Positions 909 through 11,906 of a DNA stretch of 64,000 nt are shown here, piece by piece. Each line of letters starts with the position of its first letter. The stretch's first letter is position 1. Location: the NCBI GenBank assembly GCA_022606135.1, contig JABYQN010000018.1, positions 186,001-250,000 on the forward strand, read 5' to 3'. Below the pieces are notes generated by a model. That model ran no database searches. It was not told the origin of the DNA and saw only the letters and a list, made by a program, of their open reading frames with translations. Source of the stretch: Fomes fomentarius. Its lineage: Eukaryota; Basidiomycota; Agaricomycetes; Polyporales; Polyporaceae. The translations under genes and the position numbers were made by a program.

Positions 909-1970
909 GGGAGCAGGCGACGCAGCTCCTTTGGGGCTCAGTTACTTACCACATTGTGTTCTTGTAGGCATAGCATCTCAATCCAACGCAGTCGTGTCTC
1001 TTGTCTTGATTCAATTATCCGGATTGGGCAGGTGTACATATGTATTAGCCTGTGCTAGTCGGCCAGTCAAACACCAAGTGTCATTCGTTCTCTCTCTTGT
1101 CTCTTGTAGTGGTACCCTGCAGCTCACCTCTATCATTATGAGCAATGATGTTGTATCCCTTTGGAAGGTAAGTGACTTGAGTGACCCCTCCGAGTCAGTT
1201 CCTTCTTGAGGCCAGCATGGAATCTGTACTAGTAGGGAAGTGGGTGCATATGGTGAGTGTAGTTAGTCGCAATGCGCACATTCACTGGCTATGTTCTGCT
1301 AACTTTTACTTCAGCCTGGGGAATTCGAGAAGGGTAAACTCAGTAGTAAAAACGTGCAAACTTTGAAAGGACTTTTGGGGCAGCGTTGGAGAGACACATG
1401 GCCTGCAGAAGGTGCTGGGGAACTTGTCGGATGATGTGGCTGTGCAGGACAGCACGCCAATCAGCACAAGCATTTGGATGCTCTCACTGTCTGCCAACAT
1501 GCATTTGTTCTCGAGAGTCAACATAGGCCTTGTTATAGATGTATATGGGTGGGCACATACTGATGGATTGTACTTCTTCTCTCCACAGTCATCCGTTTCC
1601 AGCACGGAGGGACCTGGAACGCCATCGCCGACGACGACCGCCGGCGGACAACGCCTTGACCCTCAAATAAAGGGATGTCGCTAAGCCAGCGGCCAAAGCT
1701 CTGCGAGCCAGTTACCCTCTTGTTTATGCACTCACTGCCTCCAAGGTTGCCACTCTGACACCGTGTCCCCCAGTCACGACCGCTTCACGGACCGCGCCGC
1801 CTTAAGGTCTAAGTAGGTCCTGGTGTATACACATTTCCTTCCCAACCACCATCTCCTCCAGGACAACCTCGCCCAAGCTGCATACTTCCTCGTTCATGTA
1901 TCTATCGGTGCTGTCACACTCATTTACTATGATTATGGACACAACGCAATGGGCACATTCGCGTTCATCC
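909..1970. other. No supported gene; decayed DNA
   Basis: Only scattered short frames. A few GT/AG-like splice signals occur (for example a gtaagtg just after 1166 and a ctccacag near 1588), so exons of a lost gene are possible, but I recognise no protein motif. Confidence 0.35.
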
Positions 1971-2151
1971 TGTTACAACCAGGCTCAGCGCCTGCTGGTG
2001 TCTTTCTTTTCCCCTCTTACCTCTCATGTTCTCTTCGAGCTCAACCTCTGTACATCCATTCTCACGGCGATCCAACATCGCCATCACGCTTACCTCTTCT
2101 CGATGACTTGGTAGGAGTCATACTGCACTAGGCCTAGACCTGTACTTACTA

Positions 2152-2231
2152 TGACTCATGCTGACTCGTGTTGACTAGTGCTGACTCACTATGACTTGTT
2201 CTGACTTGTTCTGACTTGTTATGACTCGTAC
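2152..2231 (+). promoter_or_regulatory. Eight tandem TGACTNNTNN-type decamers in the LTR U3
   Basis: Eight consecutive 10-bp units, each beginning TGACT (for example tgactcatgc, tgactcgtgt, tgacttgttc), end 14 bp before the TATA-like box. The first unit, and one further unit followed by A, contain TGACTCA, the classical Gcn4/AP-1 bZIP site. A 10-bp period puts all sites on one face of the helix. The array is repeated in the 3' LTR at 9002-9081. That bZIP factors bind it is inference. Confidence 0.7.
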
Positions 2232-2245
2232 CTCATGTATGTACT

Positions 2246-2285
2246 TATAGCACAGGCAAACTTGAGGTGTTCCTCAGTTTGACCT
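2246..2285 (+). promoter_or_regulatory. TATA-like box and inferred transcript start / self-primer of element 1
   Basis: TATAG at 2246 lies 30 bp upstream of AGTTTGACCT (2276-2285). That decamer is the exact reverse complement of AGGTCAAACT at 2488-2497, two bases after the LTR. In Tf1 the mRNA 5' end folds back onto the primer-binding site, is cleaved and primes first-strand synthesis; the spacing here fits that arrangement. Confidence 0.65.
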
Positions 2286-2485
2286 CCTTTTCCAATTGAG
2301 GCTTTCTCCCCATTGAAACCCTCGACCCCTGCTTGACTTCTAACACAGTGCTCGACTACACCTCTTCGGTGTACGTTCCCCAAACAACTTGCACACTCAA
2401 TCAATGTTCGAACCTCGACAACATCGTGACTCCTCAACTCGTGCATCTCCGCATCTCCTAGACGCCCACGAGCCTCGGCGTAACA

Positions 2486-2497
2486 TTAGGTCAAACT
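2486..2497 (+). other. Primer-binding site of element 1 (self-primed type)
   Basis: It follows the 5' LTR directly. It does not begin with the TGG expected for tRNA priming; bases 2488-2497 pair perfectly with 2276-2285 in the LTR. Confidence 0.65.
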
Positions 2498-2833
2498 CTA
2501 CAATCCTGCCAACTTCTCTAAGTTCAGGCAGCCACCCTGGATTACCCATCAGAACAAAGCTCTGATAGACCACCTACCCAGGCTCTCCTAGCAGACAGAG
2601 AACTCTTCATTGGAAAGAGGGCTGTTGTCTGGAACAACAAACTAGGTTGGGTCTACACTCTTAATAAGGACGGCTACGTTCAAGACAGAGTATCGCGAGT
2701 ACCACGCAATCAGTGGGCTATCGGAACACCCGAAAATCCTTCTACTGCATCAACTTCAGAAACCCCAATCATCGAACCACCAGAACCCCCACGCTCCCCC
2801 TCACCAGCTCCTGTGCACATTACCAACCCTGTA

Positions 2834-3814
2834 ATGTCATGTCCACCAACACCAACCACACCTCCACCGGCTACTCCGATCACAGCAATGGCAAGCACCG
2901 CAACTAACCCCAGACCCTCGGAGCGGAAGATCTGTGCCCCAAGTGATTTCAATGGAGATCATGCAGAAGCTAGTGGTTTCCTCAACAACTGCCAAACGTA
3001 CCTACGGCTGAACAAAGATTCATACACCAATGATGAGGAAAAGATCATCTTCATTCTCTCCTATATGGTTGGAGGATCAGCCGGGCCATTCAAGGAAGCA
3101 TTCACTACAGCTGCCTTTGCAATCAATCCAACTACCAACCTGGAGAAAGGCTTTGGCACATGGGCACAATTCCTAACCAAGGTCAAGACTGCATTCACTC
3201 CCCTGAACGCTGTTGACAATGCTATCACTCAAATGAAAGTGTTGAAACAAAGTGGAACAGCAGATGACTATGTCGCAGCATTCAGACCCCTTGCCATTCG
3301 ATCCACCATCACAGAAGTTGCAGTCCTGTCAGACTACTTCCTTACTGGGTTAACCACTGGCCTAGTCAAGAGTATCATGTCTGTGGAAACCCTGCCAACC
3401 ACGATGGATGGCTACTACAGTCTCGCCACCAGGCTTGACCTCCAATGGCGCAAGGGACTCGAGCTTACCAGAGGAGCAGCACCAAAGAAGACTTCCCCTA
3501 GCGCACCAGCAACAGCCTCCAAGGCTGCAAGTACAGTCCGGTTAAGGAAACTCACCGATGAAGAGCGCACTAAACTGAGGAAAGAGGGTCGTTGCTTCTG
3601 TTTCAGGGAGGCAGGACACATCTCTGCAGAATGCCCCCAGGGAGAACAGAACACTCAGGCCAGGCGCCAGATCCGAGTAGCCACCTCTACACCGGCAAGC
3701 CCTACCCAAGCTGAACCAGAGTCCGCAATTACACGTATGCATGCACTATATGCGCAGTTCACACCTGAAGAAAGGGAGGTGGTTGTGAACATTGTGGAAG
3801 CAGAGGGTTTTTGA
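2834..3814 (+). CDS. gag: Gag of element 1
   Basis: Capsid-like protein that would form the virus-like particle. From the ATG at 2834 it is about 326 residues. The centre resembles the retrotransposon gag domain (FNGDHAEASGFLNNCQTYL, then YMVGGSAGPFKEAF). Near the C-terminus is a zinc knuckle whose second cysteine is out of register: CFCFREAGHISAEC instead of CxxCxxxGHxxxxC. The frame is open upstream without a stop from 2522, reading protein-like residues (GKRAVVWNNKLGWVYTLNKD) but with no ATG, so the true start may be non-AUG or may have been lost. The stop TGA at 3812-3814 directly follows a slippery heptamer that shifts ribosomes into pol. Confidence 0.85.
   Translation: MSCPPTPTTPPPATPITAMASTATNPRPSERKICAPSDFNGDHAEASGFLNNCQTYLRLNKDSYTNDEEKIIFILSYMVGGSAGPFKEAFTTAAFAINPTTNLEKGFGTWAQFLTKVKTAFTPLNAVDNAITQMKVLKQSGTADDYVAAFRPLAIRSTITEVAVLSDYFLTGLTTGLVKSIMSVETLPTTMDGYYSLATRLDLQWRKGLELTRGAAPKKTSPSAPATASKAASTVRLRKLTDEERTKLRKEGRCFCFREAGHISAECPQGEQNTQARRQIRVATSTPASPTQAEPESAITRMHALYAQFTPEEREVVVNIVEAEGF
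3805..3811 (+). promoter_or_regulatory. -1 ribosomal frameshift site G_GGT_TTT
   Basis: In the gag frame the codons read GAG GGT TTT TGA. G_GGT_TTT fits the X_XXY_YYZ rule, and a one-base backward slip gives GGG TTT TTG AAA in the pol frame. The heptamer abuts the gag stop. The same heptamer occurs at the gag-pol junction of the gypsy element at 41447-47600. Confidence 0.8.
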
Positions 3815-6800
3815 AATGGTCACCTGCCTCGACGTCAGAGTGGCCCAGTCTCACGGTCTCACCTGTAATACTAGCAAATGTCACCAATCGATCAATGCAT
3901 ATTCAAATTACCCTAGACCAAACCGTGGAAACCCCTGCCCTCATTGATTCTGGAGCTGGAGGAATGTTCATTGACGAGCAGTTTGCTCGCATGCACAACA
4001 TTCCCCTCACACCTCTCATCAGTCCCATACCCGTGTACAACGTGGATGGAACACAGAATAAACAAGGAGCCATCACCCATTACACTTGGAGAAACCTATC
4101 AGTCGCTGGCACAACTCATCGCACCTGCCTCTTAGCCACATCACTATGAAAGGAAACCTTGATCCTGAGATTACCCTGGCTCCGACGCACCAATGCTCAG
4201 ATCAACTGGCAATCTGGGAGAATTGCTTTTGAAGATCCTATCCCTGTCTCTACCATTTCACAGCGACCCCCAGCAACAGTTGAAGAGGTGTTCGAAACCC
4301 CAGGAGACCCTACTCCCTGCATTGCAACAACCTCTCAGTTTGTCCTGGAAGAGGTTGCAACGGAACACATAGCAGAATCAGAACTACAGGTACAGGATAC
4401 CGGCAACATGGAAGAAATCAATGACGGCGAAGGAGACACCATAGACTTCAAATCAGATGATCTCCTCATTGCCTACATCTGGGGAAAACCAGTCATTGGG
4501 CTATTTGAGGAGATCCAGGATGGACCCCTCACAGACGAGCATCACACTTCCAGCGACGCCACTCTCCCAACCCATATTGGTCGAATTGCTTGATGGAATG
4601 GCACAACACACTCCTCATACGGACCACCAGTGAGCATATGGGCCAAGATCAACCCGGCAATGAAGTTGGCACAGAAACAACACGCCCAGGAAGGCCCACT
4701 GCTCATGGAGAATACCTTACCAAGCAGCTACAAGGACTACAAAGATGTTTTTGAGAAGAAAGCTTCAGAACACTTCCCAGAATCCCAACTCTATGATCAT
4801 GCAATCGAGCTGAAACCAGACTTCATTCCGAAGAACTGCAAGGTGTACCCCCTGTCCCCAAAAGAGCAGACTCTACTGGACAGCTTCATCGATGATAACC
4901 TCCGAAAGGGGTACATTCGCCCATCAAAGTCCCCAATGGCATCACCGTTTTTCTTTGTTTCCAAGAAGGATGGATCCCTTTGTCCATGTCAAGACTACCG
5001 CTATCTCAATGACGGCACAGTGAAGAACGCATATCCAATCCCTTTGGTCCAGGAGCTTGTGGACAAGTTCAAAGGAGCAACTATCTTCTCCAAACTTGAC
5101 CTACGTTCTGGATATAACAATGTCCGCATCAAGGATGGTGACCAGTGGAAAGCTGCCTTCAAATGTCAACGAGGACTGTTCGAACCCACAGTCATGTTCT
5201 TTGGACTCTGCAACTCTCCAGCCACCTTCCAAGCTATGATGAATGATCTCTTCAGTGACATGATTGATGAGGGATGGCTGGTCATCTACATGGACGACAT
5301 GCTGTTGTTCTCTAAGGACCAAAAGACTCACCAAGAACGTACCCATCGTGTCCTCCAACGACTACGGGAAAATGATCTGTACCTCAAGCCAGAGAAGTGC
5401 CTGTTTGACGTCACTGAAGTGGAATTCCTGGGACTGATCGTCAAACCGGACACACTTGCCATGGACCCAGTTAAACTCCAAGGTATACAAGATTGGCCAG
5501 TACCCACCTCTCTGAAAGGAGTACGCTCATTCCTTGGATTTGCAAACTTCTACCGCCGCTTCATCTCGAACTACTCCAACCTCACCCGACCCTTACATGA
5601 CCTGACAAAGAAGGAGCATCCATGGAGTTGGACGACCAAAGAACAGGATGCATTTGAGACTCTGAAGCAGAAGTTCATATCTTCCCCTGTTCTGGTTATG
5701 CCAGACAAAGCAAAACCATTCTCTATTGAATCAGATGCATCCAAGTTTGCTACTGGAGCAGTCCTTCGTCAAGCAGACACCAATGGAGACCTCTACCCAT
5801 GCGCTTACCTGTCAAAATCCTTCAATGATGCGGAACGGAATTATGAGATCTACGACCGCAAGCTACTAGGCATTGTATGTGCACTAGACGAATGGTGACA
5901 CTACTTGGAAGGCAGCCCACACCCAGTGGAGGTCCTGTCAGACCACAAGAACTTGACATACTTCCGCACTGCACAGAAGCTCAACCGACGACAAGCACGA
6001 TGGAGCCTACTGCTCTCACAATTCAACCTACAGCTGAAACACATTGCAGGCACCAGAATGGTTCAGTCAGACACATTATCTCGCCTCCACCACCTTAACC
6101 TAGAAGACAATGACAACAGCGCCATCATTCTACTGCCCAATGATATGTTCATTTCCACCATTGATACGGTGCTCGAGGATAGAATCAAAGCCATCCATAT
6201 CCAGGACCAAGTTATTCTAGATGCCCTAGCAGCTGCGAAGAATGGAACCCCACTCCCAATGAAGTCAACACTGGCAGACTGGACATTTCAAGATGGCTTG
6301 GTGTATTTCCGCAATAGGTGCTACATCCCACCTGACCAAGATCTGCGCCGAGAAGTAGTAAAACGGTACCATGATCTCTGGCCAATGGGACACCCAGGAC
6401 AGTTTGGGACCCTCGAAATTATGCGTCGAGAATACTGGTGGCCAGGCATGGCTGTCTTTGTACGGAACTACGTTCAAGGTTGCGCAGTATGTCAACAGAC
6501 CAAGATCAATACACACCCTACAGTGCCACCACTGATGCCAATTCTGGCAAAAGCCCATGCATATCCATTCGAGACAACCTCAGTCGACTTCATTACAGAC
6601 CTCCCCTCGTCCAATGGCTACAACTCTCTCATGGTCATGGCAGACCACGATGCTACGAAGGGGGTAATTCTTTGCGCATGCACAAAGACCATCGATGCAA
6701 TGGGAACGACACTGCTCATGCACCAAAACCTGTACAAACACTTTGGACTTCCATCACGCATCATCTCAGACAGAGGTCCTCAATTCTCTGCCAAGGTCTT

Positions 6801-7614
6801 CCAAGAGCTCACCCGTCTCGTCAGTATCAAATCGTCTATGAGCACAGCATACCACCCACAGACCGATGGAGGTACTGAACGCATGAATCAGGAAATCGAA
6901 GCCTATCTGCGTGCATTCTGCACCAACCATCCAGAAACATGGGCCGATTACCTCCCTGACATTGAATTCATGCACAATCAGAGAAGTGCTCAAGGCTGCA
7001 ATGCATCCCCCTTCTACCTTATGATGGGGTACAACCCCAAAGCAATCCCATCTGTACATCCCACGACGACTGTGCCTGCAGTAGAAGAACATCTTGGCAA
7101 TCTGGAGAAGGTACGCCTTGAGGCAATGGCAGCACACGAGCTGGCAAGACAACACATGGTTGAACGTGTCACCCGGGGATTTACACCATTCAAAAAGGGT
7201 CAGAAGGTCTGGCTAGAAGCGAAAAATCTCCGGTTCCTGAAGGATCACAAGAAACTCGCCATGAAGCGGCAGGGCCCATTTGAAATCATGGAAGTACTTG
7301 GACCATTGACGTACAAACTACACCTTCCTGCTCAATGGCGAATCCACCCTGTTTTCCACGCCTCTCTTCTGACACCATACCATGAGAATGACACGCATGG
7401 TCCCAACTACACGCTGCCCCCTCCTGACCTTATCGAGGGGGAAGAGGAATTTGAAGTGGAAGCCATCGTGGGACACAAGAAGAATCGAGGTCGCTGGACC
7501 TACCTTGTCAAGTGGAAAGGATATCCGGTATCAGAGAACTCTTGGGAGCCAGGATCACACCTGACTAATGCGCAGGAGCTGCTGACAGCATATAAGCGCA
7601 TCCATCATCTCTGA
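3811..7614 (+). pseudogene. pol: Pol of element 1, interrupted by three TGA codons
   Basis: One continuous frame encodes protease (TPALIDSGAGGMFID, catalytic DSGA), reverse transcriptase ([16 protein letters not shown]; catalytic YMDDML), RNase H ([15 protein letters not shown]), an integrase zinc finger (H...CAVCQQTK), the integrase core (SVDFITDLP, SDRGPQFSA, HPQTDGGTERMNQE) and a chromodomain (VEAIVGHKKNRGRWTYLVKW, WEPGSHL). In-frame TGA stops lie at 4147-4149, 4591-4593 and 5896-5898. The third stands in DEW-stop-HYLEG, where the family has arginine, so CGA to TGA is likely. There are no other breaks. Translation depends on the -1 shift at 3805. With the stops this copy cannot make full Pol unless TGA is read through. 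Confidence 0.92.
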
Positions 7615-7643
7615 AAACCCATCCACAACCAGCTGACCCTCGC

Positions 7644-7814
7644 ATGCTCCTCATCCTCATCATCCTCTGCCTATACCTCCTTGCTCTCCTGGCCATCACT
7701 CTGGCCATCCTCACATACCTATTCCGAGAGTTTACCCTTCAGCTCCTCGAACACACACTCCACTCTTGTGATCACCCCCACAGACCCACCACCACTGGCT
7801 GGGGAGATATATGA
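7644..7814 (+). CDS. Small membrane-protein ORF A downstream of pol
   Basis: 56 codons from ATG to TGA, starting 29 bases after the pol stop. Residues 2-27 are almost wholly hydrophobic (LLILIILCLYLLALLAIT...), a clear single membrane segment, followed by an amphipathic stretch (FREFTLQLLEHTL) and a polar His/Pro/Thr tail. It overlaps ORF B by ATGA. I recognise no family. The position between pol and the 3' LTR is where retroviruses and errantiviruses carry env, but the protein is far too small to be a classical Env. Translation would need reinitiation, a spliced mRNA or a separate promoter. Function unknown. Confidence 0.55.
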   Translation: MLLILIILCLYLLALLAITLAILTYLFREFTLQLLEHTLHSCDHPHRPTTTGWGDI

Positions 7815-7960
7815 TCTTCACCTGTGCCCTCATAACCCTTGCAGTCGCCTACATCCTCATTCTGGTGTTCATCACTGTTGTTGCCCTTCACTTCATCAAT
7901 ATTCTTCAGTCGCTCCTGGACGCACATGATCCCCTCAGACCCGACAACGACAGCATCTAA
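7811..7960 (+). CDS. Small membrane-protein ORF B, overlapping ORF A by ATGA
   Basis: 49 codons. The N-terminal half is hydrophobic (residues 1-29: TCALITLAVAYILILVFITV and following), and the tail is polar and acidic (DAHDPLRPDNDSI). Its ATG overlaps the TGA of ORF A, the arrangement used for coupled translation or termination-reinitiation. It has a similar size and layout to ORF A (membrane helix then polar tail), so the two may be a diverged duplicate or a two-subunit pair. It ends 14 bases before the next ORF. Confidence 0.55.
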   Translation: MIFTCALITLAVAYILILVFITVVALHFINILQSLLDAHDPLRPDNDSI

Positions 7961-7974
7961 CTCCCATCTCTGCT

Positions 7975-8781
7975 ATGTCGGCTCCCCACAACCAAACCAT
8001 CGAGGACACCCGCAAGATGCTTACCACCCTCCTCACACTCCCTCGTGACCACTATGAGGAGTATCAGAATGCTCTCCCAAGGGACAATCTCCTTACGATC
8101 ATCCTGGACGCAGCTCGGGATGCCAACTATGGGATAATCCATACCCGCGAGGCATTGCGCGCCACCCGGCAGGCCAAGGAGAACCTGAACATCACGGAAC
8201 GCCGTCTCCAGGCGACAGACACCCGCCTCTGTGGGTCCCTCGAGGCGATCTCTGGCTACCTCCAGGCCCATCTGGACCATCTCCACCCCCAGATCTACCA
8301 CATGCTTGCCAACACTGCCCCTGGAGACATACCCACCATTGCCAACTTCTTTGCCCCAGTTCCCCGAGCAGCAACACCATATCCCCATTCGGCAATGCCT
8401 ATCCAGAATGCTACGGCACTGCACCCTGGTCACCGTGTTTCTACCCACGCAAACGCTGGCTCTATGAGCAGTAGGGCATCATCCCGACAGACCTGCCGCA
8501 ACCGCAGTACAGCGAAACTTGCCTATCCAGTCGTCATACCCCACATCATTCACGACGAGAATACTCCTACTCCCTCCCCCACACACACTGCGAGCCCAGG
8601 CTTCCACGGACCGTACAAGACCTTTGAGGCCATGCAAGAAGCTCGCTACGGACGGGACTCCGATGGAGAGATCCGTGTCTTTGACCGATACTCCGGGGAG
8701 GAGGACTATGACGCAGACAGGGAGAACTCTCCCCTCTACCAGGAGGGCATCCTCTACAACGAGCAGGATCCCGAGGTCTGA
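7975..8781 (+). CDS. Accessory ORF C between pol and the 3' LTR, unknown function
   Basis: 268 codons from ATG. The N-terminal ~110 residues look helical and charged (DTRKMLTTLLTLPRDHYEEY, TREALRATRQAKENLNITERR), compatible with a coiled coil. The middle is rich in Pro/Ser/Thr, and the C-terminus is acidic (YSGEEDYDADRENSP). There is no membrane segment, zinc finger or enzymatic motif that I recognise. Codon use looks protein-like, and the frame is intact over 0.8 kb in an element whose pol is broken. It ends 36 bases before the 3' LTR. It could be a structural, targeting or regulatory accessory protein; a captured host gene is also possible. Confidence 0.7.
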   Translation: MSAPHNQTIEDTRKMLTTLLTLPRDHYEEYQNALPRDNLLTIILDAARDANYGIIHTREALRATRQAKENLNITERRLQATDTRLCGSLEAISGYLQAHLDHLHPQIYHMLANTAPGDIPTIANFFAPVPRAATPYPHSAMPIQNATALHPGHRVSTHANAGSMSSRASSRQTCRNRSTAKLAYPVVIPHIIHDENTPTPSPTHTASPGFHGPYKTFEAMQEARYGRDSDGEIRVFDRYSGEEDYDADRENSPLYQEGILYNEQDPEV

Positions 8782-8799
8782 ATGCTACAGGGTAGCGCC

Positions 8800-8817
8800 A
8801 GGGTAGACAGGGGGTAG
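8800..8817 (+). other. Polypurine tract of element 1
   Basis: Purine-rich AGGGTAGACAGGGGGTAG ends exactly at the 3' LTR, as expected for the plus-strand primer of reverse transcription. Confidence 0.7.
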
Positions 8818-9335
8818 TGTTACAACCAGGCTCAGCGCCTGCTTCTGGCGTCTTTCTTTTCCCCTCTTACCTCTCATGTTCTCTTCGAGCTCAACCTCTG
8901 TACATCCATTCTCACGGCGATCCAACATCGCCATCACGCTTACCTCTTCTCGATGACTTGGTAGGAGTCATACTGCACTAGGCCTAGACCTGTACTTACT
9001 ATGACTCATGCTGACTCGTGTTGACTAGTGCTGACTCACTATGACTTGTTCTGACTTGTTCTGACTTGTTATGACTCGTACCTCATGTATGTACTTATAG
9101 CACAGGCAAACTTGAGGTGTTCCTCAGTTTGACCTCCTTTTCCAATTGAGGCTTTCTCCCCATTGAAACCCTCGACCCCTGCTTGACTTCTAACACAGTG
9201 CTCGACTACACCTCTTCGGTGTACGTTCCCCAAACAACTTGCACACTCAATCAATGTTCGAACCTCGACAACATCGTGACTCCTCAACTCGTGCATCTCC
9301 GCATCTCCTAGACGCCCACGAGCCTCGGCGTAACA
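8818..9335 (+). repeat. 3' LTR of element 1
   Basis: 518 bp; same as 1971-2485 apart from a 3-bp insertion and one substitution near base 26. The decamer array is repeated at 9002-9081. Confidence 0.95.
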
Positions 9336-11906
9336 TCTTGCTTGAGCTCGCCTGTCTACGCGGCAGAACCAGACTTCCACCACCACATCTCCTGAGATGC
9401 TTGTTAAATCTCAAAAATAAAAGGAACTTCTCTGTGCACTTGAAAGAACACCGGTTTAGAAAGTGACTATCACTCCACGAGCTGTTTCATAGGCAGGGTG
9501 GGACCAACACTTGCAATCGCGGAAAATTGCATCCAATAATTTGAACACATGACAACAATCTTGCCATTGAGTTGTAGAACACCAAGCAAGATGGGCGCAC
9601 ACACACCTTCTGAAGTGGGCATGCCAGTGACACCATCACCGCGGCAAGCGCAATCAAACTTTATGGTGAGTGTGAGTATGGAAATATGGGTGGATAGTGT
9701 CAAGATTGAGCGCATGGGCAAGTCGTCTGTGGCTGCTTGTAACACCATGTATCTCGACGACCTTGAGTATGAGAGTGTAACTGTAGGTGAATCCACTTGG
9801 ATTGCATGACAAAAATGTTGGTTTTCGAGATTCGGTAGTATGTAGCCAGGACAAGATAGAGCCAGAGCAGAGCAAATCATGGATAGAGAGCAGGTCCTGG
9901 GGAGCCTCCACACAATTGGCAACCTCCACGCCCACCTACTCCTTCTCTGTCGCGTCGCAATGATGATGACGATGCAGCATTCCATTCTCCAGAGTAGTGT
10001 CAGACAGCGGACCTCGCAGCATATGAAGATGTGGAATCACCCTACGTTGCAGCCAGCCTAACCCGTACGCCAGAGGAGCTCAATGCAGAGGCAGATAGAC
10101 TACTGCAAAAAATCTCAGATGGCCTAGATGGATCAGCCATCTCTCCAGCCCTGGTCGAGCACAACACACCATCGCTCCCCAGTGGCAATGGCAACATCAG
10201 GAAAAAATGACTTGGCTACAGAGGACTACATAGTCTATGTAGCACTGATAGGGCAGTAGACAAGTCCCTTCTGGATAGCAAGTCATAGCGCCCTGCGATA
10301 CTCTGTAGAACAACATAAAGTGCCTGTAGAACTTCATAGTGCTTGTAGTTGTGCAGATTACTAGCCAAATTGTTGCATTAGGTTCACACTATCAATGGCA
10401 CACACTACATAGATGTTCGGCAACGCAATATATTGTTGACATAATCATAGTACATGTTTACCAAAGCTACAATGCTGATAGAACCACACAGACGGACGGC
10501 ACCTCACCTGCACAAATGACTATGACACAGACGATACAAAGGGATGTGATGACATACAAGAGAGAGTAATGACCAAGCAAGCTTGAGCCTGTGCTGCCTC
10601 TAAGTACTGCAGAAATGAGTGTTGTACACAACATTGGATGGGGAGTGGTTTCGTGTATAGCCGAAGTCCTCGAGCAGACACAGATACCACTTCTCACCTA
10701 AGCCCTTCTAAACTGAGCTTGTGCTCAAGGTTATCCTGCCTCTACATACTGCAGAAAGGATTGTTGTGTAGAACATTGGACGGGGTGTAGTTTCATGTCT
10801 GTTCAAAGCCCTTGAGCAGACACAGATACCACTCCTCACCCAAGCCCTTCTGCACAACAGCCATGACTGAAGACATGAGGTACCAGCTTGATCTCACTGC
10901 GAGCCTGAGGATGAGTATGAAGCACTTACCTTTGGTAGCCTGTGATATACGAGATAGATCAGGCCCCAGAGAGGTGAGACAAGCCCATACCAGACGAGCA
11001 CCAGTAGTAGACACCACTGAAGCATAAGCAAAGCATAGATTATTGAGGAGCAGAAGAGACGATAGCAACAAGTCAATGAATCATGGTGAAAAGCTGCCTC
11101 ATGCAGAGGACAGACACCAGACAATGATGTAGGAGGTGGAAGGAAGCACGAACACCAGACGAAGACTTGTGTGCTGGCACTTGCACACTTTGGCGCTTAC
11201 CATCAGCCACAACTTGACAGTTCCTCCCGTAGAATTCTCACGCTATCTTCAGTCCTCGAATGCATCCAGATTGCATCTAAACTCCTTTGCACACATACAG
11301 CACAATGCAGGAGTATGTATAATATGGATAGTAGTGAGTTCTTGGTTTGAAACCATGTAAGTTGGATGCAAGACATCTACAGTATCTACAGCTTTTACAG
11401 AGTCCTATGGAGCCCTTGCGGAGTGCTCCATTGCCTCTGTAATCGCTGGCATAGCCACGTAGGAAATGCTTTTTCCTGATGGAAGGGCTGCCTTCCATTG
11501 TTGTCACGACCCCCACCCCCTCGTCCCTTATTTCTTCCCTTTCGCGATCTGCCGAGGCCCAGGAGGCAGCACCTTCTTCATCCAAACCACGATATACCGC
11601 TGTTGCAATTAATCTATACATGGTTTCAGCTACTCTACTATATACTGCTTTTGTGGCATGGCCAGACAGGGGATGGTGAGGGACATTGTTAGTCGTGCAC
11701 AAGCTCTGCGCGCCTATTAAACGCGCGCCGTCAGAGGTGCCAGACATTCAGAAACATCATGTTTTACTGATGAAGTATATGGCTCAGGTACAAGACATAG
11801 CTACCAAATGTTTACGGAAGCATATAGTGCAGGGCACCAGATAACAAGATCAATATGCAGCACCATCTGATATGATACTCTTTGAGCTTTTACCTACCCC
11901 CTTATC
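9336..11906. other. No supported gene
   Basis: Many short frames, none with recognisable motifs. It contains the imperfect tandem duplication listed at 10586-10855 and low-complexity 'tgtagaac' stretches near 10220-10340. Decayed transposon DNA is the likeliest content. Confidence 0.4.
10586..10855 (+). repeat. Imperfect tandem duplication, about 140-bp unit
   Basis: Two copies share the blocks gcctctaagtactgcagaaa / gcctctacatactgcagaaa, gttgt...aacattgga and gagcagacacagataccac, ending in aagcccttct. The copies start near 10586 and 10729. Confidence 0.7.

What the first reader, a model, noticed from the sequence alone, without database searches (positions are those of the whole stretch)
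7644..8781. Three compact ORFs in the env position of a fungal Ty3/gypsy element, two of them tiny membrane proteins overlapping by ATGA
Seen: after the pol stop (7614) come a 56-codon ORF with a ~26-residue hydrophobic N-terminal segment, a 49-codon ORF with another, overlapping the first by ATGA, and a 268-codon ORF 14 bases later that ends 36 bases before the 3' LTR. Spacing of 29, -4 and 14 bases is unusually tight for a eukaryote, and all three frames are open while pol has three stops. Known: genes between pol and the 3' LTR are env-like in retroviruses and some gypsy elements; standard fungal Tf1/sushi elements have none, and element 2 here has none. Inference: this may be an accessory module (membrane pair plus soluble partner) not described for fungal chromoviruses.
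Basis: partly seen in the sequence, partly recalled or inferred. Interest (0 to 1): 0.82.

Follow-up and report, generated by a model that had tools for sequence, protein, structure and literature searches.

The report
Three-gene membrane block in fungal retrotransposon
A jumping element in the genome of the tinder fungus carries three extra genes where retroviruses keep their envelope gene; two of them make tiny membrane proteins, selection has kept all three working, and they may help the element travel between compartments or cells.

Summary
Confirmed. After the pol stop (7614) of a Ty3/gypsy chromovirus lie ORF1 (56 codons), ORF2 (49) and ORF3 (268), spaced as stated. They are genuine genes: between two subfamilies of the same genome dN/dS is 0.11, 0.17 and 0.13 (gag 0.09, pol 0.10), and above 0.8 in the six wrong-frame tests. 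All three are undamaged in 4 of 8 copies, three of these with open pol. ORF1 has 10 relatives in public data. A distant element of the same genome (integrase 59% identical) carries the same membrane pair before a third gene that is replaced or diverged beyond recognition. Integrases of the pair-bearing elements form one clade. A sister clade has another constrained post-pol gene.

Host: Fomes fomentarius. Function is untested. Best guess: ORF1 and ORF2 form a membrane anchor and ORF3 (long helix, disordered tail) couples particles or RNA to it, working like insect sORF2/FAST-like proteins or plant-virus movement blocks, but a member of neither. Additional ORFs of unknown function were drawn in fungal chromoviruses in 2010 (PMC2864245); a membrane pair was not found in print by my searches.

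The parts
1971..2485 (+). 5' LTR (TGTTAC...GTAACA)
   Evidence: 99.2% identical to the 3' LTR
2813..3814 (+). gag (333 codons as listed; true start not determined), one CCHC knuckle by eye
   Evidence: ORF list; weak Pfam Retrotrans_gag E 7e-5 just under its cut-off; dN/dS 0.09
3805..3811 (+). GGGTTTT directly before the gag stop TGA; candidate -1 frameshift site joining gag to pol
   Evidence: sequence; present in 7 of 8 copies examined incl. the C10 element, absent in C18b; frameshifting itself not tested
3812..7614 (+). pol (RT, RNase H, integrase, chromodomain) with three in-frame stops in this copy
   Evidence: Pfam RVT_1 2e-30, RT_RNaseH_2 7e-30, Integrase_H2C2 1.5e-20, Chromo 5e-16; other copies have a 1281-codon open frame
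7644..7814 (+). ORF1: 56-codon protein, N-terminal hydrophobic helix (residues about 1-27), REF...LLEHTLH...DHPH tail
   Evidence: dN/dS 0.11; full length without stop in 7 of 8 family copies plus the C10 relative; 10 relatives of 49-56 residues
7797..7815 (+). GGCTGGGGAGATATATGAT: ORF1 end / ORF2 start with ATGA overlap
   Evidence: identical in 7 of 7 family copies examined (copy C4b not examined); not kept in the C10 relative (TAA, 4 bases, ATG)
7811..7960 (+). ORF2: 49-codon protein, N-terminal hydrophobic helix, LLDxxDPLxP tail
7975..8781 (+). ORF3: 268-codon soluble protein; predicted helix 39-112, disordered from about 127, acidic end
   Evidence: dN/dS 0.13; AlphaFold2 model of low overall confidence (pLDDT 55, pTM 0.24; helix core 84-91); no Pfam family
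8818..9335 (+). 3' LTR

Best explanation
The three ORFs are a conserved accessory gene block in the env position of one clade of Polyporales chromoviruses. Shown: the genes are under protein-level selection, are compactly arranged and have diverged with gag and the LTRs rather than with pol. Inferred: ORF1 and ORF2 are single-pass membrane proteins anchored by their N-terminal helix with short C-terminal tails, and act together; ORF3, a long helix with a disordered acidic tail, is a cytosolic adaptor that ties Gag particles or element RNA to that membrane site; the complex steers particles or cDNA to or across a host membrane (nuclear envelope, septal-pore cap or plasma membrane). The three are probably translated from one 3' RNA region by coupled termination-reinitiation or from a short transcript; which of these is unknown.
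For: dN/dS of all three close to that of gag and pol, wrong frames 0.84-3.11. Membrane pair kept at 62% and 41% identity in an element whose integrase is 59% identical, so ORF1 is as conserved as integrase. Ten ORF1 relatives with 14 invariant columns across 13 sequences. One pair-bearing clade, support 97/97, in 31 integrases. Order pol-ORF1-ORF2-ORF3 and gaps of 0-29 bases in both lineages. P0016, a relative (source 'ena') of the C10 third gene, holds two CCHC-type knuckles by pattern, hinting at nucleic-acid binding in that lineage. LTRs of copies C5a and C9a are 100% identical over 498 bases, so elements carrying the block have moved recently.
Against: No localisation, interaction or expression data. 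ORF3 of the window has no knuckle and no Pfam, PDB or viral-structure match. Pfam did not confirm the knuckles of P0016. The membrane call is hydropathy only. Both AlphaFold2 models are weak (pLDDT 55 and 43).
Confidence: 0.4

Rival explanations
1. Membrane-remodelling or ion-channel (viroporin-like) pair that builds an assembly site for particles inside the cell, with no role in movement.
For: Two very short, highly hydrophobic proteins; a His-rich conserved tail in ORF1 (HxxH...DHPH).
Against: Would not by itself explain a conserved third soluble gene; no channel-specific motif identified.
Confidence: 0.22
2. Accessory proteins that act on the host (silencing, chromatin or transcription control), with the hydrophobic segments as anchors or degradation signals.
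For: The sister clade has an unrelated constrained post-pol gene without a hydrophobic pair, as expected for fast-changing anti-host genes; ORF3 is the fastest-changing of the three between lineages.
Against: The membrane pair is conserved about as well as integrase, unlike typical anti-host genes.
Confidence: 0.15
3. The three ORFs are pieces of one spliced protein rather than three proteins.
For: An Earliella scabrosa gene model (P0015) joins an ORF1-like start to the third gene; in the C10 element the ORF1 stop lies in GGTAAGC, a possible splice donor.
Against: That donor is absent from the 7 family copies examined (GGGGAGATATATGA); ORF1 and ORF2 each have their own conserved ATG and stop, and 9 of the 10 public ORF1 relatives end within three residues of each other after the conserved Trp or its neighbour; a gene model is a prediction.
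Confidence: 0.1
4. A degenerate or minimal retroviral envelope: ORF1/ORF2 as fusion subunits of an enveloped particle.
For: Position between pol and the 3' LTR; hydrophobic segments.
Against: No N-terminal ectodomain, no glycosylated surface subunit, 49-56 residues each.
Confidence: 0.06
5. Chance or decayed open frames.
For: The window copy of pol is damaged (three stops).
Against: dN/dS, wrong-frame controls, intact copies and distant relatives.
Confidence: 0.01

Closest known systems
sORF2 / FAST-like small transmembrane proteins of insect Metaviridae (PMC11952523; passages, outline and one section seen)
   Same: Short single-pass membrane protein encoded by a Ty3/gypsy element with no envelope; under selection; in 7 of 22 Lepidoptera consensus elements it lies downstream of pol.
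   Different: Theirs are 63-107 residues, with about 30 residues of N-terminal ectodomain, mostly an MGxxxS/T myristoylation motif and a polybasic stretch after the helix. Here the helix starts at residue 1-2, there is no MG motif and no polybasic stretch, there are two proteins, and a third gene follows.
Plant-virus triple and double gene blocks (PMC7595835; abstract seen)
   Same: Tiny membrane proteins encoded next to a soluble partner, close-packed behind the polymerase gene (position recalled); one lineage here has knuckle-like motifs in the partner.
   Different: The triple-block soluble protein is a helicase; ORF3 has no helicase match. Different viruses, hosts and no sequence similarity found.
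Additional ORFs of plant, rotifer and fungal LTR retrotransposons (PMC7264820 and PMC5408684: listing only; PMC2864245: section 5 and passages)
   Same: Extra genes of unknown function outside gag-pol; PMC2864245 labels such an ORF in fungal Gypsy elements.
   Different: No membrane pair is mentioned in the text that I saw; figure and supplement of PMC2864245 were not available to me.

Membership tests
Ty3/gypsy chromovirus (Metaviridae) | RT, RNase H, integrase and a C-terminal chromodomain between LTRs | tested here: met
   Pfam hits in pol incl. Chromo 5.3e-16; LTRs
Retroviral Env | Large surface/transmembrane glycoprotein with signal peptide | tested here: not met
   56, 49 and 268 codons; no Pfam Env match at E<=1; hydrophobic helix at the very N-terminus of ORF1/ORF2 only
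FAST / insect sORF2 | Single transmembrane helix in a very short protein | tested here: met
   hydropathy 3.16 and 2.92
FAST / insect sORF2 | N-myristoylation motif MGxxxS/T | tested here: not met
   ORF1 begins ML/MI in 13 of 13 aligned sequences, ORF2 MI in 5 of 5; some FAST proteins are palmitoylated instead
FAST / insect sORF2 | N-terminal ectodomain of about 30 residues | tested here: not met
   hydrophobic segment begins at residue 1-2 in ORF1
FAST / insect sORF2 | Polybasic stretch after the helix | tested here: not met
   ORF1 tail has one Arg then Glu; ORF2 tail is acidic
FAST / insect sORF2 | Cell-cell fusion or membrane apposition | not testable with these tools
   needs an experiment
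Triple gene block | Helicase TGB1 | tested here: not met
   no Pfam family for ORF3 at E<=1
Triple gene block | Two small hydrophobic membrane proteins | tested here: met
Double gene block | Small RNA-binding protein plus membrane protein | tested here: inconclusive
   knuckle pattern only in P0016, not confirmed by Pfam; none in ORF3 of the window

The most novel reading that the evidence does not exclude
A retrotransposon-borne movement block: two tiny membrane proteins and an adaptor that carry particles or RNA of a fungal chromovirus through septal pores, across the nuclear envelope or between the two nuclei of a dikaryon, an envelope-free spread route in fungi that evolved independently of insect sORF2 and of plant-virus movement proteins.
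Probability: 0.15. Interest if true: 0.88.

Novelty: new variant of a known kind. Interest (0 to 1): 0.62.

Why it matters
Fungal LTR elements are usually treated as gag-pol machines confined to the cell. A conserved membrane pair means selection for some act at a membrane beyond copy-and-paste. With insect sORF2 now linked to cell-to-cell transfer of retrotransposons, a second, unrelated solution in fungi would make 'do envelope-less retroelements spread between cells?' testable in a walled, dikaryotic organism.

Full report
OBSERVATION. The three ORFs, their spacing and the ATGA overlap are as reported. The element runs from 1971 to 9335, with LTRs 99.2% identical, a gag, a pol with chromodomain and three stops in pol in this copy. 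The window is contig C18:186001-250000 of a 40.9-Mb, 24-contig genome. The host is Fomes fomentarius: protein P0013 from contig C10 is an NCBI protein of that species on a contig of 2,321,218 bases, the length of C10.

COPIES. ORF3 has eight copies in the genome (11 rows, some of them pieces of one copy): window (W), C7a, C18b, C4b in one subfamily and C4a, C5a, C9a, C5b in another. ORF1 is full length without a stop in 7 of 8 (C4b is cut, with a 412-type integrase in the gap); ORF2 has no stop in 7 of 8 (C5b has one); ORF3 is full length without a stop in 4 of 8 (W, C4a, C5a, C9a). C4a, C5a and C9a have a 1281-codon open pol frame. C5a and C9a have LTRs 100% identical over 498 bases and 5-bp target duplications, as has C5b.

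SELECTION. W against C5a (Nei-Gojobori counts, Jukes-Cantor): gag 0.09, pol 0.10, ORF1 0.11, ORF2 0.17, ORF3 0.13. W against C4a gives 0.11, 0.18, 0.13, and 0.84-3.11 in the six wrong-frame tests. Within a subfamily the ratios are higher and noisy (for example ORF3 0.35-0.40 for W against C18b and C7a), as expected from decay after insertion.

RELATIVES. Of 93 integrase matches in the genome, 30 were brought in as loci and the stretch behind pol of the 23 outside the W family was read. One (C10, 59% identical) carries an ORF1 (62% identical) and an ORF2 (41%) followed at once by a 330-codon third ORF with no clear similarity to ORF3. Twelve carry (some broken) a 412-codon post-pol ORF without a hydrophobic pair; 11 of these were long enough to compare, and pairs with dS above 0.1 gave 0.14-0.26 against 0.81-2.61 in wrong frames. 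The remaining ten showed no comparable post-pol gene by inspection. The other 63 matches were not examined. Searches of the whole genome with ORF1 and with the distant relative P0009 found the same nine places only: eight W-family copies and C10. In an integrase tree of 31 rows the eight pair-bearing rows form one group (97/97); its link to the 412 group is weak (82/69), and the bootstrap had not settled.

PUBLIC DATA. ORF3: two relatives among 1166 candidates, 81-82% identical. ORF1 profile: ten among 19 candidates, 49-56 residues, 55-84% identical. C10 third gene: five besides itself among 1562 candidates, including an Earliella scabrosa gene model (Polyporaceae) that joins an ORF1-like start to the third gene, and P0016 (387 residues, source 'ena') with C-x2-C-x4-H-x4-C and C-x2-C-x6-H-x4-C patterns near its end, not confirmed by Pfam.

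POL EXCHANGE. Between the subfamilies pol is 93.0-93.9% identical, but leader/gag 84.6-85.5%, LTR 84.5-88.5% and tail 78.5-82.1% (C5b is missing from the pol comparison, and gag matches were partial in some copies). The steps lie near 3750-3800 and 7600, at the two ends of pol; dS is 0.22 in pol against 0.56-0.80 in gag and the three ORFs, though pol windows vary from 0.11 to 0.41. The simplest reading is that pol was exchanged between subfamilies while gag, LTRs and ORF1-3 stayed together. This suggests, without proving, that ORF1-3 work with gag or the RNA rather than with pol.

STRUCTURE. ORF1: hydrophobic residues about 1-27, then an amphipathic, His-rich tail. ORF2: hydrophobic residues about 2-31, acidic tail. 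ORF3: AlphaFold2 gives a helix 39-112 and disorder beyond about 127; overall confidence is low (pLDDT 55.4, pTM 0.24). P0016 gives helices 72-104 and 111-143, then disorder (pLDDT 43). Whether the two third genes are homologous stays open.

EXPRESSION. Gag ends in GGGTTTTTGA with pol in the -1 frame, a candidate frameshift site in 7 of 8 copies examined. The 19 bases across the ORF1/ORF2 overlap are identical in 7 of 7 family copies examined although the subfamilies differ by about 18% here. In C10 the gaps are 14, 4 and 0 bases. Tight gaps fit coupled termination-reinitiation, but no RNA data were available.

LITERATURE. Insect sORF2/FAST-like proteins (PMC11952523, passages, outline and section 8) are the closest working parallel; three of their features were tested and not met. 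Plant movement blocks (PMC7595835, abstract) are a second parallel. PMC2864245 (section 5 and passages; [quoted passage not shown] the figure was not available. PMC3248453 and PMC3411680 (passages) showed nothing on post-pol membrane genes.

VERDICT. A real, selected three-gene block; new protein families in a known position; function open.

Noticed in passing
window 3750-7600 against copies C4a, C5a, C9a: Pol is far more similar between subfamilies than gag, LTRs and tail, with steps at both ends of pol: a likely exchange of the whole pol gene.
   Followed up: partly
loci L029-L036, L046-L049: A sister chromovirus clade carries a different 412-codon post-pol gene under purifying selection (dN/dS 0.14-0.26) with no Pfam match reaching its cut-off.
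   Followed up: partly
window 3805-3814: GGGTTTT directly before the gag stop with pol in the -1 frame: candidate frameshift site, shared with the C10 element.
   Followed up: partly
window 1966-1970 and 9336-9340: The window copy shows no matching 5-bp target duplication although three other copies do; it may derive from recombination between elements.
   Followed up: no
G000:C4:2432684-2441303: Copy C4b is interrupted inside ORF1, with a 412-type integrase in the gap.
   Followed up: no
P0015, Earliella scabrosa: A database gene model fuses ORF1-like and third-gene sequence, so such elements are being annotated as host genes.
   Followed up: no
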